A DNA stretch of 64,000 nt from Zooshikella harenae. GTDB lineage: Bacteria; Pseudomonadota; Gammaproteobacteria; Pseudomonadales; Zooshikellaceae. The first letter of the stretch is position 1. Every line of letters starts with the position of its first letter. The DNA lies in the NCBI RefSeq assembly GCF_018837975.1, contig NZ_JAGSOY010000005.1, forward strand, positions 1 through 64,000, read 5' to 3'. Of this stretch, positions 26,795 through 45,793 are shown piece by piece. Made by a program: the position numbers and the translations under genes. Below the pieces are notes generated by a model. It did no database searches and had not been told where the DNA came from. It worked only from the letters and a program-made list of their open reading frames with translations.

Positions 26795-26824
26795 GACCCT
26801 GTAAATATTTACAGGGTCTATTTA
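26795..26824 (+). terminator. Terminator after ispH
   Basis: A perfect palindrome AGACCCTGTAAAT/ATTTACAGGGTCT (26795-26820) followed by ATTT, 17 bp past the ispH stop codon. It probably works on both strands. Confidence 0.8.
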
Positions 26825-27341
26825 CCTTGCCCTTCAGTTCTAGTTCTTTACCGATCATTTTTTTGTCCCGCCATAATAAGAGTGAAAGCCATAGCTTTTG
26901 CTCAATGATCTCAAGAAAATAACTTATTTACTGTTAGTTAAGTTTTATCGGTTTGTAATTGTTGTTTTACTTCACACAAATACTATTTTTTGTGTTTATA
27001 TTAAATAAAAAAATAGTTCTCTTTAAACACTATTAAATAGGTTGGCCATTGATGATAAAAAAATTACCGTTTGTCTTTAAGGGGGATTTATTTAAGTGAC
27101 ACCGTTTGGTATTTTTTTTGCCCCGCTTATCGCTAGTTTTTCTGGTAACTCTATGATTTTAAATTGAATTTTAAATATTCTTTTTGGCTATTAAATGTTT
27201 GTTATATATATTCTATTTCCTTTTTTGTTAATTCAATCCTCTAAAATTGATTGATTATCGGTCGATAGCCTTTCTATTACATATTTCCTGCTTCAATCTA
27301 TACTGTGTGAATAATGATGTTCTGCAAAGAAGTAAGAATAT
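26825..27341. other. AT-rich regulatory interval upstream of minor-pilin operon A
   Basis: About 515 bp without a supportable gene. It is strikingly AT-rich compared with the core genes to its left and should contain the promoter of the minor-pilin operon. I could not identify a confident sigma-70 or sigma-54 site. Confidence 0.5.
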
Positions 27342-27830
27342 ATGTTCAAAAAAAATAATGGATTTACGCTGATTGAGTTGATGGTAACTATCGTAGTACT
27401 GGGAATTATCCTTGCTATTGCTGTCCCTTCTTTTGATTCTATGATTAAAAACTACCGATTACAGAGTGTTACTAATCAACTTATAGATAGCTTTAATTTA
27501 GCGAGAAATACTGCGCTTAGTCGAAATCAGGTAATAACAATTGAAGCTTCAGGGACTACAGAAAAAAAAGAATGGAATGGTGGCTGGGTTGTTAAAGTAG
27601 GAGCAGAAGAAATACGTGTTTTTGAAGGAGTGTCTGGTGTAGTTACTATAAATGCAACTAATACTGGTGCTGGTACCAATATTAAGGAAATAGCATTTTC
27701 TGGAAATGGCAGGCTAAGTGCACCTAATACGGGTGCTGAATTTACAGTAACAGATGATCGTTCAGGTGTAAAAAAACGTGTTGTGAATGTTAATTTATCT
27801 GGGCAAACCAGAATTACATTGAAAGATTGA
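27342..27830 (+). CDS. GspH/FimT-family minor pseudopilin, operon A
   Basis: A minor type IV pilin. The short basic leader MFKKNNG is followed by FTLIELMVTIVVLGIILAIA, giving prepilin peptidase cleavage after Gly7, Phe at +1 and Glu at +5. The rest is a GspH/FimT-like beta domain ending LSGQTRITLKD. At 162 residues it fits FimT/FimU. It is the first of five genes (fimT-like, pilV, pilW, pilX, pilY1) in the order known from Pseudomonas next to ispH. I cannot tell whether it corresponds to FimT or FimU. Confidence 0.88.
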   Translation: MFKKNNGFTLIELMVTIVVLGIILAIAVPSFDSMIKNYRLQSVTNQLIDSFNLARNTALSRNQVITIEASGTTEKKEWNGGWVVKVGAEEIRVFEGVSGVVTINATNTGAGTNIKEIAFSGNGRLSAPNTGAEFTVTDDRSGVKKRVVNVNLSGQTRITLKD

Positions 27831-27872
27831 GGATGCAAGCTGAAAGACTTACCGAATTTTGGGATAGGTAAA

Positions 27873-28499
27873 ATGAAAATGAAAAATAGAGGAATATCAT
27901 TAATCGAAGTTCTAATCACTATTTTAGTGATTGGCATTGGTTTGCTTGGGCTTGCAGGATTACAGTCAGTATCGATGAAAAATACCTATCAAGCATCACA
28001 ACGATCACAGGCTATGTGGTTAGCACAGGAGATAGCTGAAAGGATGCGTGCAAATCCGGCAGGAAAAGAAAAAGGCTATTATCTTACCGAAGGTAGTACA
28101 AGCAAATTTGCAGCTAGAACACCGAATAACTCTACAAAATGCGGAACAAAACCAACCAAGATATGCAGTGCATATTCTGATAGTGGAGATAAATTTGCTA
28201 CCGCTGATGCAGCATCAGATTGTACTACTGAAGAAATGGCGACGTTTGATGCATGGGAGATAATGTGTGGTCAGTCCTATGGAAATGCAGTGAAATCCTC
28301 TGTAATTGATACATTACCAGAACTATCAGCAGAGATTACTTGCTCTGATGGAGATACAGGGGATGGTGCGGATAAACCATGTTCTGCAGGCTCAGATATT
28401 GATATTGAACTAAGCTGGTCATCCACTGAAAGGCTTGGCGCAGATGCAGATACACCCGTTAAAGATAAGTCCACTGTTACTTTAAAAGTGAGAATTTAA
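27873..28499 (+). CDS. pilV: Minor pilin PilV, operon A
   Basis: A minor pilin that joins the priming complex of the type IV pilus. Leader MKMKNRG then ISLIEVLITILVIGIGLLGLAGLQ, with cleavage after Gly7. The LAQEIAERMRANPAG segment is diagnostic of PilV proteins. The globular part has cysteine pairs (CGTKPTKIC, CSDGDTGDGADKPC) that probably form disulfides in the periplasm. It is 208 residues. AGGTAAA lies just before the start codon. It ends one base before pilW. Confidence 0.88.
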   Translation: MKMKNRGISLIEVLITILVIGIGLLGLAGLQSVSMKNTYQASQRSQAMWLAQEIAERMRANPAGKEKGYYLTEGSTSKFAARTPNNSTKCGTKPTKICSAYSDSGDKFATADAASDCTTEEMATFDAWEIMCGQSYGNAVKSSVIDTLPELSAEITCSDGDTGDGADKPCSAGSDIDIELSWSSTERLGADADTPVKDKSTVTLKVRI

Positions 28500-28500
28500 T

Positions 28501-29286
28501 ATGTATTTAAATAAACAGAAAGGACTATCGCTTATTGAATTAATGATTGCGCTAGTTTTAGGGCTTTTTTTAGTAGCTGGAGTGATTCAAATATTTTTAG
28601 GGACATCGCAAACTTATCGATTAACAGGCGACATTGCTCGTGTCCAAGAAAATGCAAGATTCGCACTTGATATTCTAGCGCGTGATATTCGCATGGCGGG
28701 TTACAGTGATCCTGATAAAGGTGAAATTTTGCCTTTTTTTGCGGTGGCATCAGCTGATTGTCCTAATAGTGATGATAATAATTGTTCAACCAATGCTGTT
28801 GATGCAAATAACTCTGACATACTAGCAATAATGTTTGATCCAATAAATGATACAGACTGTATTGGAAACACAAGTGGTATTGATGAAGATGATGTAATTA
28901 TTAATCTCTATTATATTGACGAGGAAGACGGCATTGCGAGTTTATATTGTCGCGGTTGGAATAGAACAGATAATTCATGGGTCGGTGCTCAACAGCCACT
29001 TGTTGATGGTATAGAAAGAATGCAAATTCTTTATGGTGTAACTAATACATCAGGTGATGCTATACAAAAATATGTAAATAAAGACGATGTTGATGATTGG
29101 ACCAAAGTAAGAGCAGTACGTGTAGGCTTATTAGTTAGTGCTGGTTCTCCGTCAGGATCTGTAGAAAGAAAAACCAGAAGCTATACCGTTTTAGATAGTG
29201 GAAAGATTGATATCACGGATAATGTGAATCGATATATTTATACAACCACGATAGTTATAAATAACTCATCATCAGACTACATATAG
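28501..29286 (+). CDS. pilW: Minor pilin PilW, operon A
   Basis: A minor pilin of the priming complex. Leader MYLNKQKG then LSLIELMIALVLGLFLVAG, with Glu at +5. Family segments TYRLTGDIARVQENARFALDILARDIRMAGYS and the C-terminal RAVRVGLLVSAGS are clear. It is 261 residues. One base separates it from pilV and 12 from pilX, which implies translational coupling. Confidence 0.9.
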   Translation: MYLNKQKGLSLIELMIALVLGLFLVAGVIQIFLGTSQTYRLTGDIARVQENARFALDILARDIRMAGYSDPDKGEILPFFAVASADCPNSDDNNCSTNAVDANNSDILAIMFDPINDTDCIGNTSGIDEDDVIINLYYIDEEDGIASLYCRGWNRTDNSWVGAQQPLVDGIERMQILYGVTNTSGDAIQKYVNKDDVDDWTKVRAVRVGLLVSAGSPSGSVERKTRSYTVLDSGKIDITDNVNRYIYTTTIVINNSSSDYI

Positions 29287-29298
29287 GAGATATGAAAT

Positions 29299-29745
29299 AT
29301 GATGGAAAAGCAAAAAGGATCAGCATTAATTGTTAGTCTGATTATATTAATAGTGTTAACTGTTATTGGATTTTCTGCTTCAAGAACAACTGTTTTGGAA
29401 GAAAGAATGGCCTCTAACTCTCAAAATAAGCTTAAGGTCTACCAACTTGGTATTTCTGAATTAAATTCACAATTCGTTGATATGCGAAGTGATACCGATG
29501 AGCTAGTAAAAGCAATTAAACATAAAGGTGAGGCTCAAGACCAAACTGAAATTGTGAGTGATACTGGATCTACTGTTACTACACAATTAACCTATATGTC
29601 TGATGCAAGTATTCCTGATGGCGAAGACTTACCTGAAACAAAGGCTTACCGTTATCACCTTGATACAGATATCGTCGTCACCAATGCAAATGTGCAAACT
29701 AATCAAACTCTGGGTGTCCAGTACGAAATTCGAACTGGTGGATAG
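29299..29745 (+). CDS. pilX: Minor pilin assembly protein PilX, operon A
   Basis: A pilin-like protein required for type IV pilus assembly and adhesion, acting with PilY1. Leader MMEKQKG then SALIVSLIILIVLTVIGFSA. It lacks Glu at +5, as PilX/GspK-type tip proteins do. EERMASN after the helix is the family signature. At 148 residues it is typical. AGGAGATATGAAAT precedes the start ATG at 29299. pilY1 follows after 21 bp. Confidence 0.88.
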   Translation: MMEKQKGSALIVSLIILIVLTVIGFSASRTTVLEERMASNSQNKLKVYQLGISELNSQFVDMRSDTDELVKAIKHKGEAQDQTEIVSDTGSTVTTQLTYMSDASIPDGEDLPETKAYRYHLDTDIVVTNANVQTNQTLGVQYEIRTGG

Positions 29746-29766
29746 TAGTCATAAAGGATTTTAACA

Positions 29767-32976
<3,210 letters not shown>

Positions 32977-33020
32977 TACCTTGTAGTAAGAAAGAAGACA
33001 ATTTAAACCCTAACCAATAC

Positions 33021-33060
33021 AATAGCCACTTCATTAGCATGGAGTGGCTATTTTGTTTTT
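33021..33060 (+). terminator. Terminator of minor-pilin operon A, overlapping the mnmH start
   Basis: AATAGCCACT (33021-33030), a 12-nt loop, AGTGGCTATT (33043-33052), then TTGTTTTT. The right arm contains the GGAG and GTG of the downstream gene. Confidence 0.8.
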
Positions 33061-34144
33061 ACTGGATGAAGCACAGTGGCGAACACTGTTATTAAACGAT
33101 ACTCCCTTACTTGATGTGCGTGCTCCAATTGAATTTCGAAAAGGAAGCTTTCCCTCTTCAGTCAATCTTCCCTTGCTGAATAATGAGCAGCGAAAGTTGG
33201 TAGGTACTTGTTATAAAGAGAAAGGTCAAAATGCAGCCATTACCTTAGGTTTTCAGCTTGCAACGCCTGAGATTAAACAAACAAGGATAAATAGTTGGTT
33301 GCAGTTTATTCGGCAAAATCCACATGGTGCTTTGTATTGTGCACGGGGAGGATTACGCTCAACAATCACTCAACAGTGGCTAGTGGAGTCTGGTATTGAT
33401 TATCCTCGAGTTGTCGGTGGTTATAAAACACTTAGGAGCTATCTATTAACGTACCTGGAAAGAGAAGACAATTATCCATCTTTTATTATTCTCTCAGGTT
33501 TGAGCTGTGTGGGTAAAACATTATTTTTGCGACAATTTTCTGCTCATCTGGATTTAGAGGGAATAGCAAAACACAGAGGTTCAGCCTTTGGTACTTTGAA
33601 TGTAGAGCAACCATCACAGGCTAGCTTTGAAAATGCATTGGCAGTCAAGCTGATGCAACTTAAAGAAAAGTATCGTTGTCCTATATTACTAGAGGATGAA
33701 AGTCATTTAATAGGTCGTTGTGCGCTACCAAAAACCTTGCAACGTGTTATGTGGCAATCATCTTATATTGAGTTAACAGCATCGATTGAAGAGCGTATCG
33801 AAAATGCTTTTCAGGATTATATTGAAAACAGCCCTTATCCACTTGAATTAGTTGCACAACACTTAATGTCTGCTTTGACTAAAATAAAACGTCGCTTGGC
33901 TGGAGAACGTTATTCAACGTTAACTCAAATGGTGCAAGAAGGTATGGCAAAGTATCGAAGTATGAATGATGGATCTTTACTTCGTTGTGTCATAAAAATG
34001 ATGCTAATTGAGTATTATGATCCTATGTATTATTACCATCAGCAAAAATATAAAACACAGCCCTTGTTCAAAGGTAATGCTCAAGAGGTGAGTGATTGGG
34101 TGGTAGAAAAAGTGCAAAAAGAATCAAAGACTTTGACTTGTTAA
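33053..34144 (+). CDS. mnmH: tRNA 2-selenouridine synthase MnmH (SelU)
   Basis: It replaces the 2-thio group of wobble uridine in some tRNAs by selenium, using selenophosphate. The N-terminal rhodanese domain has LLDVRAPIEF and the active-site loop YCARGGLRS with catalytic Cys96. The C-terminal P-loop domain begins GLSCVGKT and contains the family segment LLEDESHLIGRCALP. It is about 363 residues, as usual. Start choice: TTG 33053 has GGAG eight bases upstream. GTG 33044, in frame, would have no room for a ribosome site. Either start lies inside the terminator hairpin of pilY1. It is followed directly by the SelD fusion, which supplies its selenium donor. Confidence 0.92.
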   Translation: MFLLDEAQWRTLLLNDTPLLDVRAPIEFRKGSFPSSVNLPLLNNEQRKLVGTCYKEKGQNAAITLGFQLATPEIKQTRINSWLQFIRQNPHGALYCARGGLRSTITQQWLVESGIDYPRVVGGYKTLRSYLLTYLEREDNYPSFIILSGLSCVGKTLFLRQFSAHLDLEGIAKHRGSAFGTLNVEQPSQASFENALAVKLMQLKEKYRCPILLEDESHLIGRCALPKTLQRVMWQSSYIELTASIEERIENAFQDYIENSPYPLELVAQHLMSALTKIKRRLAGERYSTLTQMVQEGMAKYRSMNDGSLLRCVIKMMLIEYYDPMYYYHQQKYKTQPLFKGNAQEVSDWVVEKVQKESKTLTC

Positions 34145-34164
34145 GGAAAGGAATTGTTATTAGT

Positions 34165-36360
34165 TTGAATACACCTCAAACAGTTTATGCAAAAGACATT
34201 GTATTAGTGGGTGGGGGACACAGTCATGTGTTGTTTATCCGACGCTGGAAAATGAAACCTCTACCTGATACCCGTTTGACCTTAATCTCACCACAGGTCT
34301 ATACCCCATATTCAGGCATGCTTCCTGGCCTTATTGCTGAACACTATACCTTTGAGCAAACGCATATAGATTTGCGGAGGTTGTGCCAGTGGGCAGGTGT
34401 GCGCTTTATTCAGGATCGAGTGGTAGACATAGAACCTGATACTCAACATTTATCTTTAAAAAATTATCCTCAGCTTAATTATGATGTTCTCTCGTTAGAT
34501 ATCGGCTTAACACCTGACTTGAGCATTCCTGGAGCAACTGAGCATACTATACCTGTAAAGCCTATAAGTGATTTTTTTGCTCAATGGCAGTCTTTAAAGC
34601 AGCGAGTTACAGAAGATAAGCAATCACACTACACTATCGGTATTGTTGGAGGAGGTGCTGGGAGTATAGAACTGGCTTTAGCTATTTCGTACAGTTTGAA
34701 GTCTGTAAATGCTCACTATACTATTCATCTTTTTACTGCAAGCGCGCATATTTTGCCTGACTATTTGCCTAAAACCAGGCAGCATGTGAGGCATAAATTA
34801 TTTCAGGCTCATGTCAACATCCATGAAAACTTCAAGGTGAGTAATGTATGTAGCCATGGGATTTATAATCAAAATAATGAAGAAGTGCTTCTGGACAAAA
34901 TTTTTTGGTGTACTCATGGTCAAGGTGCTGACTGGCTAAAAAACACGTTACTTGACATATCAGAACAAGGCTTTGTCCTTGTGAAAAATACATTGCAGGC
35001 GTTGAAGTTTGATAACATTTTTGCAGCAGGAGATATTGCACACTTAACACCCGAGGCAAATCCAAAAGCGGGCGTATATGCAGTACGCATGGCACCAATA
35101 CTGTTTCATAATATTTGTGCACTTTTAGCGAATAGATCATTAAAGTTATTTAAACCTCAAAAGCATTTCTTAAGCCTGCTAGCGTGTGGAGAGAAAGACG
35201 CTATTGGTGAACGAGTACCATTTTCCTTTCATGGTCCTTGGGTGTGGCGTTGGAAAGACTTCCTGGATCGTCAGTTTATAGAAGCGTTTCAGCAACTGTC
35301 TCTTGCTGAAATGTCAAGTCTGACCAAGTTCTATCGTTTTAAAAATTCTAGTCCTGTGATGCGTTGCGATGGCTGTGGTGCCAAAATTAGTCAGGATATA
35401 CTTGCAGAAACGCTAGAAACAATAGGCGTTAATTATCAAGCAGAAGATGCGGCAGTAATTCCTTGGCGAGAAGCGAAATTTTTACTGCAGACGGTTGATC
35501 AATTAAGAGCTTTTATTGATGATCCCTGGTTGTTTGGGCGAATAGCTATAGTACATGCATTAAGTGATATTTATGCGATGGGAGGCAAGCCCCATAGTGT
35601 ACAGGTAGCGATCACCTTACCCTATCAACAACAGAACTGTTTAAAGCGAGAGCTGCTATTACTCATGCAGGGCATTCAGTATGAATTAGATGAAGCCGAG
35701 TGCGCTTTGGTTGGAGGACATACAGCAGAAGGTGCAGAATTAAGTGTAGCGATCACGGCCAATGGACGACGAGGGCTGGGTAAATTATGGCAAAAAACAG
35801 GAGCCAAGCCAGGTGATGTATTAATCCTTACCAAACCCCTCAGCACTGGAGTGATACTTGCTGCTAACAAAGCAGCTCAAGCCAAGGGTAACTGGGTTGA
35901 AGAAATGTTAGCAATGATGCTCCTCAGTAATCGAGCAGCTGTGCCTATAGTTAAAAAATTCCAACCTCACGCTGTAACTGATATTACTGGCTTTGGGTTG
36001 CTAGGACATTTGTTAGAAATGCTGAAACCTGAGCAGTTAAGTGCTGAGTTGGATCTGGGGCAGTTACCTGTCTTAGAGGGGGCAACAGACTTATTTCGTC
36101 ATGGCTGGCAAAGCACTCTCCAAGCTGCGAATGAAAATAGCCGTCATTATTTACATAAAGCAAATCAATGGCTGAAAGAGGCTCACTATCCTTTATTATT
36201 TGACCCACAAACGTCTGGTGGGTTATTGGTTGCTGTTAGTGAGGATGTTGCTTATGACTGCCTTAATGGGCTGCAAATAGACTATCCACAAGCAGCGATT
36301 GTAGGGAAAATTCTTCCAAAGGAAGAACAAACGACAACAACAGTTTATCTAAAAAAATAG
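34165..36360 (+). CDS. selD: NADH-dehydrogenase-like domain fused to selenophosphate synthase SelD
   Basis: A two-domain protein. Residues 1-370 are a pyridine-nucleotide-disulfide oxidoreductase of the NDH-2 type, with FAD loop DIVLVGGGHSHV and NAD loop IGIVGGGAGSIELA. From about residue 400 onward it is selenide, water dikinase. Its active site MRCDGCGAKIS keeps the catalytic cysteine and lysine and has Ala where E. coli SelD has its second, dispensable cysteine. DAAVIPW and LVGGHTAEGAELS follow. There is no UGA codon at the active site, so it is a cysteine form. Start uncertain: TTG 34165 (MNTPQTVYAKD) is preferred, with AAGGAAAGGA upstream. Longer readings overlap mnmH. The redox domain presumably aids selenide supply (inference). 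Confidence 0.92.
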   Translation: MNTPQTVYAKDIVLVGGGHSHVLFIRRWKMKPLPDTRLTLISPQVYTPYSGMLPGLIAEHYTFEQTHIDLRRLCQWAGVRFIQDRVVDIEPDTQHLSLKNYPQLNYDVLSLDIGLTPDLSIPGATEHTIPVKPISDFFAQWQSLKQRVTEDKQSHYTIGIVGGGAGSIELALAISYSLKSVNAHYTIHLFTASAHILPDYLPKTRQHVRHKLFQAHVNIHENFKVSNVCSHGIYNQNNEEVLLDKIFWCTHGQGADWLKNTLLDISEQGFVLVKNTLQALKFDNIFAAGDIAHLTPEANPKAGVYAVRMAPILFHNICALLANRSLKLFKPQKHFLSLLACGEKDAIGERVPFSFHGPWVWRWKDFLDRQFIEAFQQLSLAEMSSLTKFYRFKNSSPVMRCDGCGAKISQDILAETLETIGVNYQAEDAAVIPWREAKFLLQTVDQLRAFIDDPWLFGRIAIVHALSDIYAMGGKPHSVQVAITLPYQQQNCLKRELLLLMQGIQYELDEAECALVGGHTAEGAELSVAITANGRRGLGKLWQKTGAKPGDVLILTKPLSTGVILAANKAAQAKGNWVEEMLAMMLLSNRAAVPIVKKFQPHAVTDITGFGLLGHLLEMLKPEQLSAELDLGQLPVLEGATDLFRHGWQSTLQAANENSRHYLHKANQWLKEAHYPLLFDPQTSGGLLVAVSEDVAYDCLNGLQIDYPQAAIVGKILPKEEQTTTTVYLKK

Positions 36361-36832
36361 ACAGCTTGTCCTTTGTTAATAATTTTTAAAGTATACATCC
36401 TACGAAGTGCAAATTGCTACAGACTAGAGCCTGACAGTTTATAGAGAATATGCTGTGAATTTATCGCTGGACGCTTGGCTGCTGAGATAGTGCTATAACT
36501 TTACCTTTATTAAAACAATTTCTGAAGTACCTTTGTCGAAAGTCTGCATAACGCCTCTCGAACACGCCGTTAATCCTTCCCTGGAGGCTTGGTTGCCGCT
36601 TCCTTGCGGCAAACAGTTCGACGAGCATTACCCAGCCTTTGTTCTCTCCATTTCGACCTACAGAATTTAATCTTTATAGCGTTGTAGATTGATTAGCACT
36701 GTTTATTCTTACAATTGAAGTGTCGTATCCCGTTTTATCAATACAAACCTCCCACCTGTCACGAATTCGTCACACGTAGCCAAAACCTGTTGTATAAAGC
36801 ATCATCAGTTATTGTACTGCAGTGGTTAAATA
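36361..36832. other. Intergenic region with structured, possibly repetitive DNA upstream of operon B
   Basis: No gene. GTCGAAA (36535-36541) and TTTCGAC (36651-36657) bracket about 120 bp that is less AT-rich than its surroundings and contains the hairpin TTGCCGC/GCGGCAA (36593-36612). It has the look of a dispersed intergenic repeat, but only one copy is in this window. The promoter of operon B should lie between 36700 and 36832, where a GTCACGAATTCGTCAC segment stands out. Confidence 0.4.
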
Positions 36833-37264
36833 ATGAGCAAAATTAAAGGGTTTACGTTAATAGAGTTGATGGTGACAGTAGCCATATTAGGAATTTTGGC
36901 GGCTATTGGAATGCCATCGATGGTGGACATGATGCGCCGTGAAAAGGCTGCAGAAGGCACCAATAGGATATTAAGCGCACTAAAAGAGCTTAAAACAGAA
37001 GCAATGACAAGACGCAGGGAGTATATAATTATAATAAGAAACAAGGAAATAAATATTGTTAATAATGGTAGTAGAAAAACAGTTGAGCTACCAAATGAAT
37101 TAACCTATCAGGTGACACCAAGCAGGGGATTTGGTTTTAATAAAGATGGATTTTTAACTCCCTCCAGTCTGAATAATGTTGAAATTAATATCAATTCAAC
37201 GCATTCAGGTATTGCTACAAGGACTATTTCAATTAATCGTTCTGGTCAAATAATTAAAAATTAA
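36833..37264 (+). CDS. GspH/FimT-family minor pseudopilin, operon B
   Basis: A second FimT/FimU-like minor pilin. Leader MSKIKG then FTLIELMVTVAILGILAAIGMPS, with Glu at +5 and cleavage after Gly6. It continues with a short GspH-type beta domain ending ISINRSGQIIKN. It is 143 residues. It shares order and position with its counterpart at 27342, but the globular parts differ considerably. It is the first of five tightly packed genes. Confidence 0.87.
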   Translation: MSKIKGFTLIELMVTVAILGILAAIGMPSMVDMMRREKAAEGTNRILSALKELKTEAMTRRREYIIIIRNKEINIVNNGSRKTVELPNELTYQVTPSRGFGFNKDGFLTPSSLNNVEININSTHSGIATRTISINRSGQIIKN

Positions 37265-37270
37265 TTAAGG

Positions 37271-37657
37271 ATGATGATGAAAACGAAAATTAAGAATCAA
37301 GCTGGTATGAGCATGATTGAGGTATTAGTTACTATTGTAATTACCAGTGTTGCATTATTGGGATTGGCCGCACTACTGACTAAATCTATGCAAAGTACTT
37401 TCGATGCATCTCAACGTACTACAGCAGTGTGGGCAGCAAATGACTTTGTTGAACGGTATAGAATAGGAATTAGTTCAGATAAAGATGTAATTAAAAGTCA
37501 AGTAGAAAGTGAACACGACTTAGTGAATAAATTAGCAGGCCAAAATGTAAGGGCAATAGGTCGTGAAGAATATATGCAAATAACGTGGAATTGTACTTCT
37601 TGTAAAAATAATGTAAATCAACAAAATGTTAGACTTCTTTTAAATAACAAAGAATGA
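37271..37657 (+). CDS. pilV: PilV-like minor pilin, operon B
   Basis: Leader MMMKTKIKNQAG then MSMIEVLVTIVITSVALLGLAALLTKSMQSTFDASQRT, which parallels the operon A PilV (LLGLAGLQSVSMKNTYQASQRS). It is only 128 residues against 208, so the globular domain is reduced. Two CxxC-type cysteines (CTSCK) remain near the C-terminus. Its stop overlaps the start region of pilW by 4 bp, indicating coupled translation. Confidence 0.82.
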   Translation: MMMKTKIKNQAGMSMIEVLVTIVITSVALLGLAALLTKSMQSTFDASQRTTAVWAANDFVERYRIGISSDKDVIKSQVESEHDLVNKLAGQNVRAIGREEYMQITWNCTSCKNNVNQQNVRLLLNNKE

Positions 37658-38511
37658 TGGAATTAATAATGAAATTTCAACGAGGAGTTACATTAATTGA
37701 GTTGATGATAGCATTAGCACTCAGTGTCATGCTATTAATGGGAATAACTAAAATATTTAGTTTAGGGAAGCAGACTTTAATGAGTGCAGAAGGCCAAATG
37801 CAACATGAAGAGGCTGGCCGACTTGGATTAAGCTATATTCGTCAAGCAATTCGTAATGCGCATTATGTTCCATTTGATGATAATAATGTTCCTATTGAAC
37901 TATCACAATTACCAGGATTTCCTCATAATCAAGCTGACTGTGAGGACAAAGATTTAAATCCTAATCATTGTAATACACTAAATCAAGACGCAAATGATAG
38001 CTTGACGGTAAGTTACATTTATCAAAATGAAGAACAATTTAGTTGTGCTCAAGAATTCAGAAACACTGATCCAATTAGAATAGCGGTGTCTTTTTTTATA
38101 GATAGTGATGAAGATGTCCTCAAGTGTAAGGCATATTATTATGACCAAAGTATAAATGGATACGTAGCTAGAGGTAATACAGTAGAACTGGTCAAAAATA
38201 TAATAGGATTAAAGCTGGCATATTACTATGAAGATGGCGTTAATACTGGATTAATTAACACCATTAATAAGGATAGTCCAGCTGGTATGGCTGTTGATAC
38301 ACGTTGGGAAAAGATAAACGGCGTAAAAATTGGTGTAGTGGTTACCTCATCAGATAGAGGATTAAACCCATCAGCTAGCGTTAATGTATTTGGCAATCGC
38401 TTAGCTGATGATAGTGATAAATTTAATATTCCTGATAGGTATAATAATAAAGTAAATAAAGTTTATATTACTACAGTTCAAGCAATAAATTATGGAGCTA
38501 AGCGACTATAA
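37654..38511 (+). CDS. pilW: PilW-like minor pilin, operon B
   Basis: Leader MMELIMKFQRG then VTLIELMIALALSVMLLMGITKIF. The following GQMQHEEAGRLGLSYIRQAIRNAHY matches the PilW pattern seen in operon A. The globular domain has several cysteines (DCEDKD, HCNT, SCAQ, LKCK) that may form disulfides. It is 285 residues. ATG 37669 (MKFQRG) would give the more usual leader length. The stop overlaps the pilX start by one base. Confidence 0.85.
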   Translation: MMELIMKFQRGVTLIELMIALALSVMLLMGITKIFSLGKQTLMSAEGQMQHEEAGRLGLSYIRQAIRNAHYVPFDDNNVPIELSQLPGFPHNQADCEDKDLNPNHCNTLNQDANDSLTVSYIYQNEEQFSCAQEFRNTDPIRIAVSFFIDSDEDVLKCKAYYYDQSINGYVARGNTVELVKNIIGLKLAYYYEDGVNTGLINTINKDSPAGMAVDTRWEKINGVKIGVVVTSSDRGLNPSASVNVFGNRLADDSDKFNIPDRYNNKVNKVYITTVQAINYGAKRL

Positions 38512-39065
38512 TGCTGAAATATTCTCTAGCGAAACAAGAAGGTGCATTGTTAGTAGTTGCCTTAATTATTATGTTTTTGCTAAGTGCAGCTGGAATGTCT
38601 GCGTTTTACTTTTCTCAGACTTCTGAAAAAGCAACAGCTTATAATTACTATAAAACAATCACGGAGCAAAATACTCTATCGGAAGTTTATGAGCAAAAGT
38701 ATTGGCTAGCAGATGATGATATAACAATGCAAAGGGTTAAAAAATTTATTCCAAGTTTTGATGTAAAGCAAGTAGATGGAATAAATTTTGTTAAAATAAA
38801 AGGTGTGGTACTTGATGAAAGTCTTTGTGAAGATTCAGGTGGCGGTCATATAAACTGCTTTCAAAATTATTTGCGTTATGAAAAGAAAGTGCCTGCTTTA
38901 AATACAGGTAATCAGATCAATGTTGGAGATGGCTCTTCTGACTCGTATCATATGTTTAGTTTAAGGGTAAGCGGATTCCTCGCTAGCAACACTAATCCTG
39001 ATAAAGTTGATATTTATGGCGAGGAAGAGCAACAAGCAGGATTTGTAATAAAAAGACTAGACTAA
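38511..39065 (+). CDS. pilX: PilX-like minor pilin, operon B
   Basis: Leader MLKYSLAKQEG then ALLVVALIIMFLLSAAGMSAFYFS, without Glu at +5, as in PilX. It is 184 residues, 36 longer than the operon A copy. One cysteine pair is visible (LCEDSGGGHINC). It lies immediately before the second pilY1, the same partner order as in operon A. Similarity to PilX is confined to the N-terminal helix, so the name rests on position and architecture. Confidence 0.75.
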   Translation: MLKYSLAKQEGALLVVALIIMFLLSAAGMSAFYFSQTSEKATAYNYYKTITEQNTLSEVYEQKYWLADDDITMQRVKKFIPSFDVKQVDGINFVKIKGVVLDESLCEDSGGGHINCFQNYLRYEKKVPALNTGNQINVGDGSSDSYHMFSLRVSGFLASNTNPDKVDIYGEEEQQAGFVIKRLD

Positions 39066-39083
39066 TTAGTGGTTTCTCAAAAA

Positions 39084-42000
39084 ATGAAAAATAAAATTGC
39101 GTTATTTGGAGCTAGCTTGCTTGCTTTGAGTGTTTCGTTTACTTCATACTCTGACGACTTAGAGCTATACAAGCCAATAAAGATATCTGGTGAAAGAAAG
39201 TCAAATATTCTTTTTGTGCTGGATGACTCAGGGAGTATGAAAGGTTATTTTATGCCTCAATTAAAAAGAGCTACAAAGAATCTTATAAATAAACAAAAAA
39301 ATGGTGAAATTAATATTGGTTTAATGAATTTTAATAATGGAAAACTCGTTGTTCCAGTGAGAAAGTTAACAGACAGTCATCGAAGAGATTTAATTAAGGG
39401 AGTTAATAGCTTAAATGCAGATGGCAGCACTCCTCTTTCGGAAACATTGTATGAAGCCTACTTATACTTTTATGGTGAAGAACCAAGGTTTGAAAATTAT
39501 CTAGACAAAGATGATGAAAATTATGAAGTAAGAAGAAGTTTTCTTGATGCAAGTGGAGAATATAAGTCGCCTATTTCAAAAGATGAAGCGCCTGCTTGTG
39601 GAGTAACAGATAGTATCATTCTATTTACTGATGGTGAACCAAGTGAGTCACAGCGGGCAGATAACTCTATTGATTCTTTAATTTCTGGAAAAACTTTACC
39701 TGATAGCTTGGATAATCCATGTAAAGATGGTTATAACTGTTTGGATGAGCTTGCTTGGTTTTTGGGCCATAATGACAGTAATCCGTACTTTGATGGTGAT
39801 CAGATTATTAAAGTATACACTGTTGGCTTTGACCTAGACAGTTTACCTAAATATCGCGCTGACAAGGCAATAAAACTATTGAAGAGTACGGCTGAAAACT
39901 CAAAAGGGATATATACTTCTGTAACTAATGAAGAAGAAATAGAGGTTGCTTTTACAAAAGCTGTTGAAGCGACAAATGAAAATACCTCTACAGTCTCTTC
40001 TTCATCAATTACTGTAAATCAGTTTTCAAAAGCTAGCCATGAGAATTATACATTTTACGCAATGTTTAAGCCTTCTACGAGCGGTCGATGGGAAGGTAAT
40101 ATAAAAAAATATCAGTTAGCTTCTCGGTTTGTAGATGATAGTGGTAATGTTATTCCTGATAGTGAACTAACAACATTTAAAGAGATGAAAGAGAGGAAGT
40201 ACAAGGTTAAGCTTTTCCTTGAAGATAAAAAAAATAAAAATATTCTTGATGCTACTAATACTGTAAAAGCTGAAACTTTAGATTTATGGAATCCCATCGA
40301 TGATAATTATGATGGAGGAAAAGTAAATGCTGGTGGCATAAGAAGTGCAATGAAAAATAACAAAAATAAAGAATGGAGTTTTCTTACCTATGATGAGAGT
40401 TCTGTAGAAAAAAACTTAACAGCTATTGATATAGATACTATCGAATGTACTCTGTTTGATGTTATTGAAGGGGAAAAATGTAATAAAATTAAAAGATTTT
40501 TAGTGGGTAAAGATGAAAGTGGTAATAGTTCTAATTGGTTAGGAGATATTATCCATAGTACCCCAACAGTAATAACGTATAGATCATCATACAGTGATAC
40601 TCCATCTTTGAAAGGTAATAAAAAAGAGGGTGATGCATATTTATTTGCAGGTAGTAATGATGGCTATGTGCACGCATTTGATGTGCAAACGGGTACGCAA
40701 AAATTCTCATTTATTCCTGAAGAATTTTATCGAAATATTCGTGGTTATGTAGAAAATAACCCAGGTGAAAAACTATATGGCTTTGATGGCCCGATCACCG
40801 CTGATTATGACTACGAATTAAAGTGTAAAGAAAAAGGTACTGATAAGGATTGCGATAAAGGTACTGATGTTAGTAATAGAGACTATGTGAAAACAATTAA
40901 GTATGCCAATTTATATGTTGGTATGCGAAGAGGAGGGACTTCCTATTACTCACTTGATGTTACTGATATTGATCATCCAAAATTTAGATGGGTTATCAGA
41001 GGAAGTGCTTTAGGGGTAAAAGAGCGTTATGGAAGAGAGATAGAAAAAAAAGATGAAGGTTACGTTTTTAAAGGAAAAGATACTGAAGTTGATAGTTTAT
41101 TGACATATAAAAATGATTTTTCTGAATTGGCGCAAACATGGTCTAAACCAATTGTAACATATATTAAAAGTGATGCTGGAAAGAAAATTAAAGTAATAAT
41201 TTTTTCAGGAGGATATGATCCTGTCAATGATGATCAAAATTACACTGAAAATTATGGCACAACTAGCAAAGGTAATGCTGTTTTTATTGTAAATGCAGAG
41301 ACAGGTGAATTAATAAAAAAAGCTACTGGTGAAACAGATGGTGGGGATATAAGTTTAATAGTAGATGGAATGAATTACAGTTTGCCTGGAGGTGTTGCCG
41401 TTGTTGATAAAAATGGTGATAACTTTGTAGATGATATATTCACTGCTGATGTACGTGGGAATATATTTCGTATTCATTTACCAGGGGGTAGTGTTAACAA
41501 AATAAAAGCAAAAAAAATAGCTAGTTTGGGTCACAAAGATAGACATACACGTTTTTTTACTGTACCACGAATAGCATTCGTAAAAGATCCTAATAAAATA
41601 CTAAAGTATTCTATTGCAATCGGATCAGGCAACAGAGCAAACCCACGTGACAAGTCGATGAATAATGGACTTTTTGTGATATTTCAGGATATTAACTACG
41701 ATTCAGTTAACGAAGTTAAATATGGTGACTTGAAAGATATATCTAGCTTTGGCGGTAAGCAAGTTATAAGTGATAAGTTAGAAAAAAAACTAGGTGATGC
41801 TAAAAGTAAAATTAGTACAGAAAAAACAAAAGTTGAAAGTGTTAAGCAAGCAAAAAAACGCTTCGATAAAAATGTGACGATATGGTTTGATGTTAAAAGA
41901 CAGCTTATGTCGATTGACGAAAAGACTTACTTGAAGTCAATTGAACAATATAAAAAACTTAAAGGTGATCACCTTGCTCTTATTGACTCGGAGATAACCA

Positions 42001-43586
42001 TTTTAAATAATAGAAATAAATTCATTGATAATGAAATCCCTAAGCTGAATGCTGAGATAGTTACAAAAAGGGAAGAGATTAAAAGTATGGGGGAGGGGAG
42101 AAAAAAAGAAGAGGGTGAAGAGTACATTAACGAGCGCAAAAATTTAATTGCTAAGTATGAAAATGAGCAAAAGGATATTCCCTCAAAACTTGCTATAAAA
42201 AATAAGAATCGTGTTGAAATTGAAACGGATTATAAGGGTAAGATAAGTAGTGCTAATTCAAAAATTTCCAGCTTAAAAAATAAAAAAGATAAGTTGTTAG
42301 CACTTAAGAGTCAAGTTGCTAAAATAAGCGTAATTAATCAAAACGTTGTTTTGGGTTCGGTGATCACTTCCGCTCATCAAGATAATATTAAAAAGCTAAT
42401 AGATGTTACAGGTAAAAAATTATCAGACTTATCGCTGGGTGAGATAGTCGATAAACTCGGTAAGGTTGCAAAAATAATTAAGGGGAAAAAAGCTTTTGAA
42501 AATGTTGACAAGGCTGTTGAGAGCTTACCAGATAACTTTGATAAAGATGACTTGAGTGGCTTATTACCTGATGAAGATGTCGAAAAACTTGCAAGTAATC
42601 TTAAGTTATCTGACGGCGTTAAATTGAAGAAAGATGTGCTTGAAAAGTATCTAAAAGATAATACCTCTGAAAAAGAGTCTTATAATAGTAAAATATCGAG
42701 CATTTCTGAATTGATGAGCGTAAAAGATGAAATAGAAATACGAAGTGAATATTGGAAACATCTTTTCAACCTAAGTACAAAGCTAGACTCGAATCAAAAA
42801 GAAATTGACTTTTCTGAATTCTCAAATGCTTTTATTGATAGAGGTTATTTTACTGACGTTGAATCTACGGCTCTTAAAACTGCAGGACTAATCGATCGTG
42901 TGAAGGAAGCATATTCCCAAGTTATCAAAAAGTATGAACAACAATACTCTAATGCTGAGAAGGAATATAATACGTTATACACAGATAATAAACTTAAGAT
43001 AAATAAGAACGAGGTGGCTGAAGTTCAAAAAGCAATCTTTGCTAGTGGTGGCTGGAAAAAGATGTTCGTTCAAGGTTGGAAAATTTTGTCTCCAGTGACT
43101 ATAAGAGATCATCAAGTTCGCTTCACAGCGTTTACTCCTTCAAATGATGACTCTATGGAAACTTTATGTGGTGCTGATTTAGGGCAATCTTTGGAGTATA
43201 GTTATGGTTTAAAAACGTTGACGACTAAAGATCCTATAAAGCTTGGAGCAGGTTTTTATGAAAGTCCTCAGCTATTTCGTACTTACTATGTTGTAGGTAA
43301 AAAGAATGAATTTTGGAAGCCTGTTGATTTAGATGGTGATGGTAAGATTAGCGAAAGAGAACGTAGGGCTATTAAGAAACCTATGGACTGCCTGTTTGGT
43401 GCAGCTGGTGCTGTTGAAGAATGTAAAGATATCGATGTAAGTATGAATATGGTCTATTGGAAAAACTGGTTAAAAACTGAAGGTAGCTATTCTAGAGTAT
43501 TTGAGGATGCTGATGACAGCGCTAGTAGTTCTGCTGATTCTGACTCTGATGCTGGTGGTAAGTCTTCAGATCCTTCTGGTAGCTAA
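39084..43586 (+). CDS. pilY1: PilY1-type tip adhesin with large coiled-coil insertion and EF-hand, operon B
   Basis: Signal peptide MKNKIALFGASLLALSVSF, then a VWA domain with FVLDDSGSM and LFTDGEPS. The beta-propeller has AGSNDGYVHAFD, LYGFDGPI, YYSLDVTDIDHP and calcium loop D775-KNGDNFV-D783. Between about residues 885 and 1320 lies a Lys/Glu/Asp/Ser-rich, largely helical insertion with long coiled-coil stretches. In operon A this place holds only about 85 residues. The propeller then resumes (GWKILSPVTIRDHQVRFTAFTPS). Near the C-terminus is a canonical EF-hand loop, D1415-LDGDGKISER-E1426, and the protein ends in a Ser/Asp tail. It is 1500 residues from ATG 39084; an in-frame GTG at 39069 is possible. 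Confidence 0.9.
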   Translation: MKNKIALFGASLLALSVSFTSYSDDLELYKPIKISGERKSNILFVLDDSGSMKGYFMPQLKRATKNLINKQKNGEINIGLMNFNNGKLVVPVRKLTDSHRRDLIKGVNSLNADGSTPLSETLYEAYLYFYGEEPRFENYLDKDDENYEVRRSFLDASGEYKSPISKDEAPACGVTDSIILFTDGEPSESQRADNSIDSLISGKTLPDSLDNPCKDGYNCLDELAWFLGHNDSNPYFDGDQIIKVYTVGFDLDSLPKYRADKAIKLLKSTAENSKGIYTSVTNEEEIEVAFTKAVEATNENTSTVSSSSITVNQFSKASHENYTFYAMFKPSTSGRWEGNIKKYQLASRFVDDSGNVIPDSELTTFKEMKERKYKVKLFLEDKKNKNILDATNTVKAETLDLWNPIDDNYDGGKVNAGGIRSAMKNNKNKEWSFLTYDESSVEKNLTAIDIDTIECTLFDVIEGEKCNKIKRFLVGKDESGNSSNWLGDIIHSTPTVITYRSSYSDTPSLKGNKKEGDAYLFAGSNDGYVHAFDVQTGTQKFSFIPEEFYRNIRGYVENNPGEKLYGFDGPITADYDYELKCKEKGTDKDCDKGTDVSNRDYVKTIKYANLYVGMRRGGTSYYSLDVTDIDHPKFRWVIRGSALGVKERYGREIEKKDEGYVFKGKDTEVDSLLTYKNDFSELAQTWSKPIVTYIKSDAGKKIKVIIFSGGYDPVNDDQNYTENYGTTSKGNAVFIVNAETGELIKKATGETDGGDISLIVDGMNYSLPGGVAVVDKNGDNFVDDIFTADVRGNIFRIHLPGGSVNKIKAKKIASLGHKDRHTRFFTVPRIAFVKDPNKILKYSIAIGSGNRANPRDKSMNNGLFVIFQDINYDSVNEVKYGDLKDISSFGGKQVISDKLEKKLGDAKSKISTEKTKVESVKQAKKRFDKNVTIWFDVKRQLMSIDEKTYLKSIEQYKKLKGDHLALIDSEITILNNRNKFIDNEIPKLNAEIVTKREEIKSMGEGRKKEEGEEYINERKNLIAKYENEQKDIPSKLAIKNKNRVEIETDYKGKISSANSKISSLKNKKDKLLALKSQVAKISVINQNVVLGSVITSAHQDNIKKLIDVTGKKLSDLSLGEIVDKLGKVAKIIKGKKAFENVDKAVESLPDNFDKDDLSGLLPDEDVEKLASNLKLSDGVKLKKDVLEKYLKDNTSEKESYNSKISSISELMSVKDEIEIRSEYWKHLFNLSTKLDSNQKEIDFSEFSNAFIDRGYFTDVESTALKTAGLIDRVKEAYSQVIKKYEQQYSNAEKEYNTLYTDNKLKINKNEVAEVQKAIFASGGWKKMFVQGWKILSPVTIRDHQVRFTAFTPSNDDSMETLCGADLGQSLEYSYGLKTLTTKDPIKLGAGFYESPQLFRTYYVVGKKNEFWKPVDLDGDGKISERERRAIKKPMDCLFGAAGAVEECKDIDVSMNMVYWKNWLKTEGSYSRVFEDADDSASSSADSDSDAGGKSSDPSGS

Positions 43587-43608
43587 CCTTTGAAAATATG
43601 TTTAAGAT

Positions 43609-43635
43609 AAAAAGCCCCTTTTAGGGGCTTTTTTT
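43609..43635. terminator. Bidirectional terminator between pilY1 (operon B) and pilE
   Basis: AAAAAGCCCC, loop TTTTA, GGGGCTTTTTTT. It lies between convergent genes with A and T tracts on either side. The right T-run touches the pilE stop codon. Confidence 0.9.
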
Positions 43636-44056
43636 AATTCCAGTTTGGACTTTTTGTGTCATCACTGCTTAATGAAATTTCATCATCTCCTGTTCCAAAG
43701 GTATTTTTTCCATCAGTAGGATCAGCAAAAATAGTAATAGTATTCCTATTTTTTCTAATTCCAATGCTATATTTATTATCAACTGTTAAAAAGTTATCTG
43801 GATAACAAAGGCTATTATTGCATTTGTCTGGGCCTGCGCCGTTGGGCTTTAGCCTTTCAGCATATCGCAGATGTTGTGTGAAATACTTTTGCTGTACTTG
43901 CATTAGCTCCATCAATTTAGATTTTGCTTCTGACTTATTGCCTCGTTGAATATATTCCCGGTAACTGGGTATAGCGATTGCCGCCAAAATAGCAATTATT
44001 GCTACTACAATCATAAGTTCTATAAGCGAAAAACCCGTTGTATTTTTTTTCATCAC
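43634..44056 (-). CDS. pilE: PilE-type pilin
   Basis: A type IV pilin-like protein with leader MMKKNTTG then [38 protein letters not shown], which is the PilE minor-pilin signature. The C-terminal half contains a cysteine pair (KCNNSLC). It is 140 residues. It is placed at the end of minor-pilin operon B but on the opposite strand. In Pseudomonas pilE lies in the same cluster. Because it has its own promoter it can be expressed independently of both operons. Other short type IV pilins look similar, so PilE against a generic minor pilin is a judgement from context. Confidence 0.85.
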
Positions 44057-44392
44057 TACAATTTTACCTATATTTTATCTCTAACCATTAGTACTTCAGT
44101 TGTAATCAAACAATGGTTGATTTTACTGATCTGGGGTGGGTATACCTTGGATGGTTTTTTTCAGATATTGCTTTTTGACAGATGGTGAGATTTAGATGAT
44201 GTTTGGTTACACAAGCTGGTTTCCATTTTGGCGAGGACTGTTTGAGCGGAGCGAGTTCCGCAAGCCAAGAATGGAAATCTGCTTGTGTGCAAGACCTTCA
44301 AATGAGTAAAAAAGAATTAGCAATTTTCCCGCTCAAAGAGAGCGGGATATGCAACTTCAAAACTTACGAAATAAGCTGTTTTTGAAGACGAA
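44057..44392. other. Intergenic region between pilE and the PIN-PhoH gene
   Basis: No supportable gene. It contains the long hairpin element listed next and a second hairpin CCCGCTC/GAGCGGG (44328-44346) without a T-run. CTTCAAAA pairs with TTTTTGAAG near 44356-44387. The pilE promoter should lie in 44060-44180. Confidence 0.5.
44209..44288. repeat. 80-bp structured inverted-repeat element
   Basis: ACACAAGC pairs with GCTTGTGT, TTTCCATT with AATGGAAA and TTGGC with GCCAA, separated by small bulges. Inside is a smaller hairpin GCGGA/TCCGC. It is more GC-rich than the DNA around it. Its identity is unknown: candidates are a mobile-element end, a dispersed repeat or a structured RNA. Confidence 0.55.
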
Positions 44393-45793
44393 TTATAAAT
44401 TAGCCTCCGCAAACTCAGCTAAGAGTGAGCGTGGTACGGCTTTTAACTGTATATTCCCTCCATGCTTAAAGCCTTTAAAGCGTTCTGTTAAATAGGTTAA
44501 GCCTGAGCTGGTGGCTGACAGGTAGGGTGTATCTATTTGCGCTAAGTTGCCCAAACAAATCACTTTACTGGCATTGCCTGCTCGAGTAATGATGGTTTTA
44601 ATTTGGTGTGGTGTCAGGTTCTGTGACTCATCAATAATGATTAGACTTTGTTGGAAGCTTCTACCACGGATATAATTAAGTGATTTAAAGTGGAGCGGGA
44701 CTTTTTCCATAATATAATCGACACTACTTGTTGTGCATTCATCATCACAGTGTAGTGCTTCCAAGTTATCTGTAATGGCCCCCAACCATGGCTCCATCTT
44801 TTCTTCTTCAGTACCGGGTAAAAAGCCTATATCCTCATCTAAGCCTTGAACGCTTCGAGTTGCGATTATACGACGGAAGCGTTTTGTTACTACCGTCATC
44901 TCAATTGCGGCAGCTAGCGCGAGTATTGTTTTACCTGAGCCGGCAGCACCCGTTAGATTCACCAGATGTACATCAGGATCAAGCAGTAAGTTGAGGGCCA
45001 TTGCCTGATAGATATCAAGTGGTTTAAGTCCCCACGCTTCTTGGTCAATGAGCTGATTATAATGCAAGTGTAAGAGGGTCACCTGCTCTTCTGTGACTTC
45101 AGTAATACGACCAATGATGCCTTGGGCATCAAGGATAAACATGTTGGGGTATACGTCTTGTAGAATGCCTTCGCGGGGTAGGTAATGGATGGTTTTACCT
45201 TCTAACTGAATAGTTTCTACCTGAGCGATGTTATCCCAAAAATTTCCTGCAATTTCGTAATAGCCTTTACTTAATTGAGCTATATCTGATACCAGCTGAT
45301 CGTTATGGTAATCCTCGGACTCAATACCACACCCTCTTGCCTTCAGACGCATATTGATGTCTTTTGTAACCAAGACAATACGATCATCAGGGCGATGTTG
45401 CTGCATTTGGCAGAGGGTATTAATAATGGTGTTATCGTTGATATGGTTGGGGAGGTATGAAACGTTGTTTGCGTGTTGTGGCATAAGAATAGTAAGTGAA
45501 CCATTCGGTGGGCTTCTATCCCCTCGTCGAATAGGGACGCCTTGCTCTATTTCTTGGGGAGACGCTGACCCCAGAATGGTATCAATAGCGCGAATAGCCT
45601 GACGACAGTCAGCTGCAATAGTGTGTTTACCCGTTTTTAATTTATCCAGTTCCTCCAGAACAGTCATAGGGATTATTACGCGATGTTCATCAAAGTTGAG
45701 TAACGCATTGGGGTCATGAATTAAAACATTAGTGTCGAGGACATAGTTGATGGGTAGAGACAAATCGGGTTTTGCTTGAATCAGGTTGTCCAT
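44393..45793 (-). CDS. PIN domain-PhoH ATPase fusion protein
   Basis: A PhoH2-type protein coupling a ribonuclease-like PIN domain to a PhoH helicase-like ATPase. The PIN domain (residues 1-140) shows YVLDTNVLIHDP, LEELDKLK, AADCRQA and VTKDINMRLKA, which supply the acidic metal site. The C-terminal ATPase has Walker A LTGAAGSGKTILALA and Walker B LIIIDESQNLTP. It has 466 residues from ATG 45793 (MDNLIQ), with AAGG about eleven bases upstream. A longer reading from 45877 adds residues without family support. Such proteins are reported to unwind and cleave RNA. No adjacent toxin-antitoxin partner is visible. Confidence 0.9.
   Translation of the reverse strand: MDNLIQAKPDLSLPINYVLDTNVLIHDPNALLNFDEHRVIIPMTVLEELDKLKTGKHTIAADCRQAIRAIDTILGSASPQEIEQGVPIRRGDRSPPNGSLTILMPQHANNVSYLPNHINDNTIINTLCQMQQHRPDDRIVLVTKDINMRLKARGCGIESEDYHNDQLVSDIAQLSKGYYEIAGNFWDNIAQVETIQLEGKTIHYLPREGILQDVYPNMFILDAQGIIGRITEVTEEQVTLLHLHYNQLIDQEAWGLKPLDIYQAMALNLLLDPDVHLVNLTGAAGSGKTILALAAAIEMTVVTKRFRRIIATRSVQGLDEDIGFLPGTEEEKMEPWLGAITDNLEALHCDDECTTSSVDYIMEKVPLHFKSLNYIRGRSFQQSLIIIDESQNLTPHQIKTIITRAGNASKVICLGNLAQIDTPYLSATSSGLTYLTERFKGFKHGGNIQLKAVPRSLLAEFAEANL

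What the first reader, a model, noticed from the sequence alone, without database searches (positions are those of the whole stretch)
27342..44056. Two complete minor-pilin operons with the same gene order around mnmH-selD
Both operons encode FimT-like, PilV, PilW, PilX and PilY1 in the same order. Apart from leader helices and domain plans they have diverged strongly, including cluster B genes that overlap by one to four bases. Only one pilE is present, on the other strand. Two priming/tip complexes for one pilus fibre would allow alternative tip adhesins in the same cell. This is the strongest candidate here for a system not well described.
Basis: partly seen in the sequence, partly recalled or inferred. 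Interest (0 to 1): 0.7.

Follow-up and report, generated by a model that had tools for sequence, protein, structure and literature searches.

The report
Swapped second pilus-tip operon in Zooshikella
This marine bacterium carries several complete gene sets for the tip of its type IV pili, a known arrangement, but one of them sits in a chromosomal slot where a sister species holds an unrelated tip set behind almost the same start sequence.

Summary
In detail: 27342-32976 (A) and 36833-43586 (B) are two intact fimT-pilV-pilW-pilX-pilY1 operons around mnmH-selD, with a pilE on the other strand. The window is from a Zooshikella species. 'Two' is an undercount: the genome has a third full operon (contig C179, canonical PilY1, own PilE), yet only one PilB over its cut-off and one full-length PilM. 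Several tip sets sharing one machine is the best reading. That idea is established (Myxococcus xanthus, Xylella), and 21 of 56 genomes examined, own included, hold two or more PilY1 places. Less ordinary: in Z. ganghwensis operon A is orthologous, but the selD-phoH slot that holds B carries a non-orthologous cassette with another PilY1 class. Repeat, leader and fimT start are 309/320 identical between the species, then homology is lost. PilY1-B is nearest to Zooshikella A (100/98), though the alternative tested is not rejected (AU p 0.09). It has a 435-residue helix-rich stretch in the propeller region where A has about 50-60. Whole-cassette replacement of pilus-tip genes is known from Acinetobacter baumannii. 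I rate this a new variant of a known kind, resting on two genomes.

The parts
27342..27830 (+). operon A FimT/FimU-like minor pilin (GspH + N_methyl)
   Evidence: orthologue in Z. ganghwensis
27873..28499 (+). operon A PilV
   Evidence: TIGR02523 78.7 bits
28501..29286 (+). operon A PilW
   Evidence: PF16074 82.9 bits
29299..29745 (+). operon A PilX
   Evidence: PF14341 48.4 bits
29767..32976 (+). operon A PilY1, 1069 aa: VWA with MIDAS-like start (D44), calcium-loop-like DIDGDTYAD at 720, propeller region, Gly-Thr tail
32874..32964 (+). 15 perfect copies of a hexamer coding (Gly-Thr)n at the C terminus of PilY1-A
   Evidence: 83% identical protein in Z. ganghwensis
   Evidence: 83% identical protein in Z. 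ganghwensis
36541..36644 (.). about 104-bp imperfect palindromic repeat, dispersed in both Zooshikella genomes
   Evidence: ends set by eye
36645..36879 (+). leader of operon B plus the first 47 bases of fimT: 228/235 identical to Z. ganghwensis, last 135 bases (36745-36879) without a change; homology then fades
36833..37264 (+). operon B FimT-like minor pilin
37271..37657 (+). operon B PilV
   Evidence: TIGR02523 57.0 bits
37654..38511 (+). operon B PilW-like (below PF16074 cut-off)
38511..39065 (+). operon B PilX-like (no family match; by position and an intermediate PilX)
39069..43586 (+). operon B PilY1, 1505 aa: VWA with MIDAS-like start (D52), calcium-loop-like DKNGDNFVD at 780, propeller region, weak EF-hand-like loop near the C terminus (9.7 bits, below cut-off)
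41742..43046 (+). 435-residue Lys/Glu-rich, Pro-poor, helix-rich stretch of PilY1-B (residues 892-1326) in the propeller region, where A has about 50-60 residues
   Evidence: helices in a very low-confidence model; borders set by eye from the alignment
43634..44056 (-). PilE-like pilin (PF16732 ComP_DUS 45.8 bits + N_methyl)
36880..44218 (.). the exchanged cassette: colinear homology with Z. ganghwensis stops at about 36880-36918 and resumes at about 44205-44222

Best explanation
A and B are two of three minor-pilin/PilY1 tip-complex operons of one Zooshikella type IVa pilus machine. Each set (FimT, PilV, PilW, PilX, PilY1) would prime fibre assembly and stay at the tip, with PilY1 as the calcium-dependent adhesin or sensor, so that the cell can cap its fibres with different tips. 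A is the ispH-adjacent operon seen across the order. B most likely began as a copy of the A lineage and diverged fast. The selD-phoH slot that holds B is an exchangeable site: Z. ganghwensis has a different tip cassette there, joined to nearly the same leader and fimT start. Shown: gene content, one PilB and one full-length PilM, slot contents, break points. Inferred: function at the tip, alternative use, direction and mechanism of the exchange (homologous recombination in the shared leader/fimT start on the left and the phoH flank on the right).
For: Operon order and domains. MIDAS-like and calcium-loop-like motifs in all three PilY1; weak sequence match of PilY1-A and PilY1-B to the P. aeruginosa PilY1 structure 3hx6 (E 7e-4; 4e-4). 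Third operon on C179; one PilB over cut-off (856.7 vs 675.65 bits, 1 of 11 rows) and one full-length PilM. A-type operons beside ispH in 10 of the 13 genomes whose loci I read, own included. PilY1 tree of 44 rows: B with the Zooshikella A pair 100/98, the ispH-operon PilY1 of G002-G004 next 98/95; Z. ganghwensis slot PilY1 in the other main clade with G003/G004 (100/98). Slot comparison: 60-base blocks 0.60-1.00 identical from 33019 to 36558, 309/320 identical over repeat+leader+fimT start, then 0.15-0.45 inside the cassette, 0.72-0.93 again from 44222. Both slot cassettes AT-rich (GC 0.336, 0.346) against A 0.369/0.378, C 0.424 and the murJ-ispH genes 0.439.
Against: Only two Zooshikella genomes, so one exchange seen once. 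The leader's identity is not unique: 634 of 23,874 windows of 240 bases are at least as identical, the leader's own neighbours among them; the rest of those in the printed list lie in two other tracts (about 21.6-22.0 and 48.3-48.9 kb), so it may be general interspecies recombination or constraint. The best tree that holds Zooshikella A with the three ispH PilY1 of G002-G004 and leaves B outside is not rejected (AU p 0.093). PilW-B has a branch of 3.57 and joins the ispH PilW of G002-G004 without starred support. Neither window PilY1 passes PF05567. Three further PilA-like pilins exist. No expression data.
Confidence: 0.7

Rival explanations
1. Functional partition by pilin: the sets serve different fibres (for example the ispH operon for the pilBC-linked PilA, the others for the PilA-like pilins on C363 or C362) assembled by one machine, rather than alternative tips of one fibre.
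For: Three PilA-like pilins outside the operons: C323:159092 beside pilB/pilC, C363:8568, C362:11541 (names by eye).
Against: Only one PilB over cut-off and one full-length PilM; in the 7-14 kb read around each, none of the three pilins lies beside a minor-pilin operon.
Confidence: 0.2
2. B is a relic: an old duplicate under relaxed constraint, no longer used.
For: Long PilY1-B branch (1.47) and PilW-B branch (3.57), low GC, missing or weak family matches for B FimT, PilW and PilX, no sigma-70-like promoter match in 36360-36900 (0 found, 1.4 expected in shuffles).
Against: All five frames open and closely packed, pilin leaders in FimT, PilV and PilW, MIDAS-like and calcium-loop-like motifs kept; the sister species keeps an operon in the same slot behind nearly the same leader.
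Confidence: 0.15
3. The near-identical leader is conserved by selection (a regulatory region that fits any cassette), not by recent exchange.
For: Bases 27263-27322 before fimT-A are also conserved (0.97); so are the stretch before and the start of ileS and the start of mnmH.
Against: The conserved tract includes the dispersed repeat and 47 coding bases without any base change, and fades abruptly after them; no Rfam match in the leader at E<=1 (the only match in 26700-44500 is a sub-threshold one at 43581-43657, E 0.43) and folding no better than shuffles (z 0.71).
Confidence: 0.35

Closest known systems
Myxococcus xanthus minor-pilin/PilY1 clusters 1-3 (PMC7541494, passages; PMC9109919, abstract and section list; PMC13190605, abstract and sections 2.1, 2.3, 2.6)
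   Same: Three complete FimU/PilV/PilW/PilX/PilY1 clusters with one T4aP machine; PilY1 of different classes and origins; differential use of the PilY1 proteins.
   Different: M. [quoted passage not shown] no slot exchange between sister species in what I read. In Zooshikella A and B are related and both have VWA.
Acinetobacter baumannii FimU-PilV-ComB-PilX-ComC-ComE-ComF evolutionary cassette (PMC10374093, passages incl. part of the abstract)
   Same: Whole tip cassette replaced with flanks kept; inserts in the PilY1 homologue ComC tied to function.
   Different: There the exchange is at one orthologous locus; here a second, accessory slot differs while operon A at ispH stays orthologous, and the cassettes differ in PilY1 class. 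The insert here is in the propeller region, not in the VWA.
Xylella fastidiosa paralogous pilEVWX/fimT/pilY1 sets (PMC9956873, passages)
   Same: Paralogous tip operons in one genome with different mutant phenotypes.
   Different: No cassette swap between species in the passages seen.
Pseudomonas aeruginosa fimU-pilVWXY1Y2E beside ispH/lytB (position recalled, no call)
   Same: Gene order and chromosomal neighbour of operon A.
   Different: One set only (recalled); its PilY1 was not compared here beyond the weak 3hx6 matches.

Membership tests
T4aP minor pilin/PilY1 operon | FimU/T, PilV, PilW, PilX, PilY1 in order, class III leaders | tested here: met
   PilX-B without family match, PilW-B below cut-off
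PilY1 (PF05567 propeller) | C-terminal propeller profile above cut-off | tested here: inconclusive
   A and B not over cut-off; Z. ganghwensis A orthologue 28.8 bits with neighbours, over 28.1; 3hx6 matches E<1e-3
PilY1 | calcium loop and VWA MIDAS (motifs recalled; both named in PMC13190605 section 2.1) | tested here: met
   by pattern; VWA
PilY1 | tip location, adhesion | not testable with these tools
   no experiment
Several tip complexes on one machine (M. xanthus kind) | two or more complete clusters, one T4aP machine | tested here: met
   (machine judged by PilB and PilM only)
Several tip complexes on one machine (M. xanthus kind) | single major pilin | tested here: inconclusive
   three PilA-like pilins outside the operons
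Several tip complexes on one machine (M. xanthus kind) | a cluster alone suffices for pili | not testable with these tools
   needs deletions
Exchanged tip cassette (A. baumannii kind) | orthologous flanks, non-orthologous cassette at one site | tested here: met
   (two genomes)
Exchanged tip cassette (A. baumannii kind) | repeated exchange in a population | not tested
   one other genome of the genus in the relatives searched and one in the named scan, the same one

The most novel reading that the evidence does not exclude
Zooshikella keeps one fixed tip operon (A) and one exchange slot between selD and phoH, where whole tip cassettes of unrelated PilY1 classes are swapped behind a constant repeat, leader and fimT start, so that any incoming cassette falls under the same expression signals and signal peptide. 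This would be a plug-in site for pilus tips drawing on a genus-wide pool.
Probability: 0.3. Interest if true: 0.6.

Novelty: new variant of a known kind. Interest (0 to 1): 0.38.

Why it matters
If the slot is a real exchange site, it gives a natural set of swaps in one machine: the same PilB and PilM with different tip sets, which would let one ask what the tip alone decides (surface choice, motility, DNA uptake, phage entry). It would also extend the cassette replacement seen in A. baumannii to an accessory slot in an environmental genus. If it is not, the locus is one more genome with several tip operons.

Tried and rejected
A relative of PilY1-B in plasmids: 7 of 72,556 records match, none covering 80%, best 26% identity. 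A scan of genome contigs with PilY1-B: 33 pattern matches, none a relative. PilY1-B in 390 genomes of the order (own included): 4 with a match at E<=1e-60, the nearest after B itself being the A genes of the two Zooshikella genomes, then G004 and G067; in 369 genomes of the class (own included) at E<=1e-55: only its own genome. The genome rows shown say that at most two candidates per genome were scored in these two searches, and the cut-offs were strict, so weaker kin may be missed. No donor of B was found.

A structured RNA in the leader: not supported. Promoter scan: none found at B.

Leader as a unique anchor: weakened by my own control.

Silent cassettes sharing the leader: the full leader matched once in each Zooshikella genome; the other listed matches there are to the dispersed repeat. 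Only 40 of 114 and 40 of 95 candidates were scored, so not all copies were listed. In G002-G004 only short matches of E 3e-4 or worse were listed, none to the whole repeat.

Structure of the PilY1-B part: mean pLDDT 35.9 from a 3-row alignment, so no fold search was run.

PilW tree (25 rows, quick method): B not reliably placed.

PilY1 tree: 48 rows collected after removing near-copies, 4 short rows (578-808 aa) dropped before the tree of 44. Many rows lack parts because loci carried 1,500 bases of flank, and of the PF05567 rows only the ten best had loci; the Z. ganghwensis C22 PilY1 is not in the tree.

Count of PilY1 places: starts over 2,700 bases apart, from the rows, weak and partial rows included; G011 counts 3 there but four PilY1 ORFs are seen.

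Paper searches that led nowhere: (no paper with all four words). PMC6024842 (passages) was not used.

Full report
What is there. The window holds two intact minor-pilin operons in the order fimT, pilV, pilW, pilX, pilY1 (A 27342-32976, B 36833-43586) on either side of mnmH-selD, and a pilE-like gene on the other strand at 43634-44056. Family scans support the four minor pilins of A; its PilY1 shows only VWA over cut-off. They support B more weakly: N_methyl in FimT, PilV and PilW, TIGR02523 for PilV, a sub-threshold PilW match, nothing for PilX, VWA for PilY1. PilX-B is placed by position and by a third PilX (G002, L075) that hits both. All three PilY1 of the genome carry a DxSGS MIDAS-like start, a TDG and a calcium-loop-like motif (motif definitions recalled, both motifs named in PMC13190605 section 2.1).

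Whose genome. The sister genome G001 is Zooshikella ganghwensis DSM 15267: its 80,654-base contig is NZ_AUAF01000011.1. The window's genome is in the same genus by the tool's kinship; the species was not determined.

Not two but three. A search of the own genome with PF05567 finds a canonical PilY1 on C179 (E 6e-51), and the stretch holds a full operon: fimT, pilV, pilW, pilX, pilY1, a PilY2-like gene (by position), pilE (names by eye and by BLAST kinship to A and B). A lone C-type PilW gene lies at C46:752-1753; I saw no pilin partner among the ORFs of the first 2.6 kb. Two sets with T2SS gene order are on C223 and C246 (by eye). One of 11 PilB rows passes the curated cut-off (C323:157072), and one PilM is full length; a second PilM row (C323:144223) is partial and passes only with its neighbours. 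So the tip sets appear to share one T4aP machine, with three PilA-like pilins to choose from. In 56 genomes, own included, the number of PilY1 places was 0 in 14, 1 in 21, 2 in 10, 3 in 6, 4 in 1, 5 in 2, 6 in 1 and 8 in 1, so 21 of 56 have two or more.

Ancestry. Of the 22 genomes with an A-like PilY1 I read loci of 13; 10 of these have an A-type operon next to ispH (own, G001-G004, G011, G025, G029, G041, G046; not seen in the loci of G022, G052, G054). A is thus the positional operon. In a tree of 44 PilY1, B joins the Zooshikella A pair (bootstrap 100, SH-aLRT 98), with the ispH-adjacent PilY1 of G002-G004 next (98/95); B's branch is long (1.47 against 0.28 and 0.33 for the A pair). Holding A with those neighbours and B outside costs 15.7 log units, AU p 0.093, so a duplication inside the Zooshikella lineage is favoured, not proved. 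PilW-B joins the ispH PilW of G002-G004 without starred support on a branch of 3.57. G011 has four minor-pilin/PilY1 sets of two PilY1 classes in about 29 kb, one ORF away from ispH, so arrays at this place are not confined to Zooshikella.

The slot. In Z. ganghwensis the flanks are the same (murJ to ispH, A, mnmH, selD on the left, phoH and a helicase gene on the right, names by eye; 81-95% protein identity for the non-pilin flanks, 63-85% for the A proteins). Between selD and phoH it has fimT, pilV, pilW, pilX, a 1660-residue PilY1 of the PF05567 class (E 1e-63) and pilE on the + strand. This PilY1 falls in the other main clade of the tree, with G003 and G004. Searches with PilY1-A (E<=1e-10) and PilY1-B (E<=1e-60) matched only operon A in that genome, and the own genome has no PF05567 match at E<=0.001 beyond C179 and the weak one in B. 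At the DNA level homology runs through the leader and the first 47 bases of fimT (309/320 identical from 36560; 135 bases without a change up to 36879), fades in the following 40 bases, and resumes at 44205-44222. The two FimT proteins share their first 17 residues.

How far to trust the anchor. Control: of 23,874 windows of 240 bases in the alignment, 634 are at least as identical as the leader (0.9625), the leader's own neighbours included; in the printed list the others lie at about 21.6-22.0 and 48.3-48.9 kb. Short near-identical tracts are thus a feature of this species pair, as interspecies recombination would give. The leader shows no Rfam match at E<=1 and no unusual folding. The repeat at its left end is dispersed in both genomes. 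Both slot cassettes are AT-rich.

PilY1-B. Between conserved propeller segments it has a 435-residue stretch (892-1326), 17% Lys, 9% Glu, under 1% Pro, no Cys, where A has about 50-60 residues. The model shows helices there but at very low confidence. One paper search for PilY1, coiled coil, beta-propeller and insertion together found none, which is weak evidence of anything.

Known background. Several tip complexes on one machine: M. xanthus (PMC7541494, passages; PMC9109919, abstract and section list; PMC13190605, abstract and sections 2.1, 2.3, 2.6) and X. fastidiosa (PMC9956873, passages). Whole-cassette replacement at a PilY1 locus: A. baumannii (PMC10374093, passages; found through). Searches for further accounts of cassette exchange at minor-pilin loci (6 of 6 listed, 12 of 251, 15 of 72, 12 of 95) listed nothing closer by title and start of abstract; they cover openly licensed PMC papers only. 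One search for Zooshikella with pili gave four papers, seen as a listing only, none of them about Zooshikella pili by title or start of abstract.

Verdict. Interest 0.38.

Noticed in passing
32874-32964; Z. ganghwensis L072 near 12800: The C terminus of PilY1-A ends in a hexamer microsatellite in both species but with different units (15 x GGCACA here, about 5 x AGTTCA there), giving Gly-Thr or Ser-rich tails; length could vary by slippage without a frameshift.
   Followed up: partly
L092 9218-9781: The Z. ganghwensis slot PilE also has an in-frame repeat (Ala-Ala-Gly-Gly units) near its C terminus.
   Followed up: no
48328-48827: A largely intergenic tract nearly identical to Z. ganghwensis (runs of 151, 107 and 92 identical bases), the most identical of the compared stretch; cause unknown.
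   Followed up: no
36541-36644: About 104-bp imperfect palindrome dispersed in the two Zooshikella genomes: 41 and 43 matches listed, some partial, one each being the leader itself; a copy lies upstream of operon A in Z. ganghwensis but no other was found in this window.
   Followed up: partly
L041 752-1753 (C46): Lone C-type PilW gene without neighbouring pilins, possibly a cassette remnant near a contig end.
   Followed up: partly
L093, L080, L081 (G011 C277): Four minor-pilin/PilY1 sets of two PilY1 classes in an array one ORF away from ispH.
   Followed up: partly
L040 3136-3621 (C362), L039 8568-8987 (C363): Extra PilA-like pilins: one beside a short PilC/GspF-like ORF, one beside a membrane protein that looks like an O-antigen-ligase-type glycosyltransferase (by eye).
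   Followed up: no
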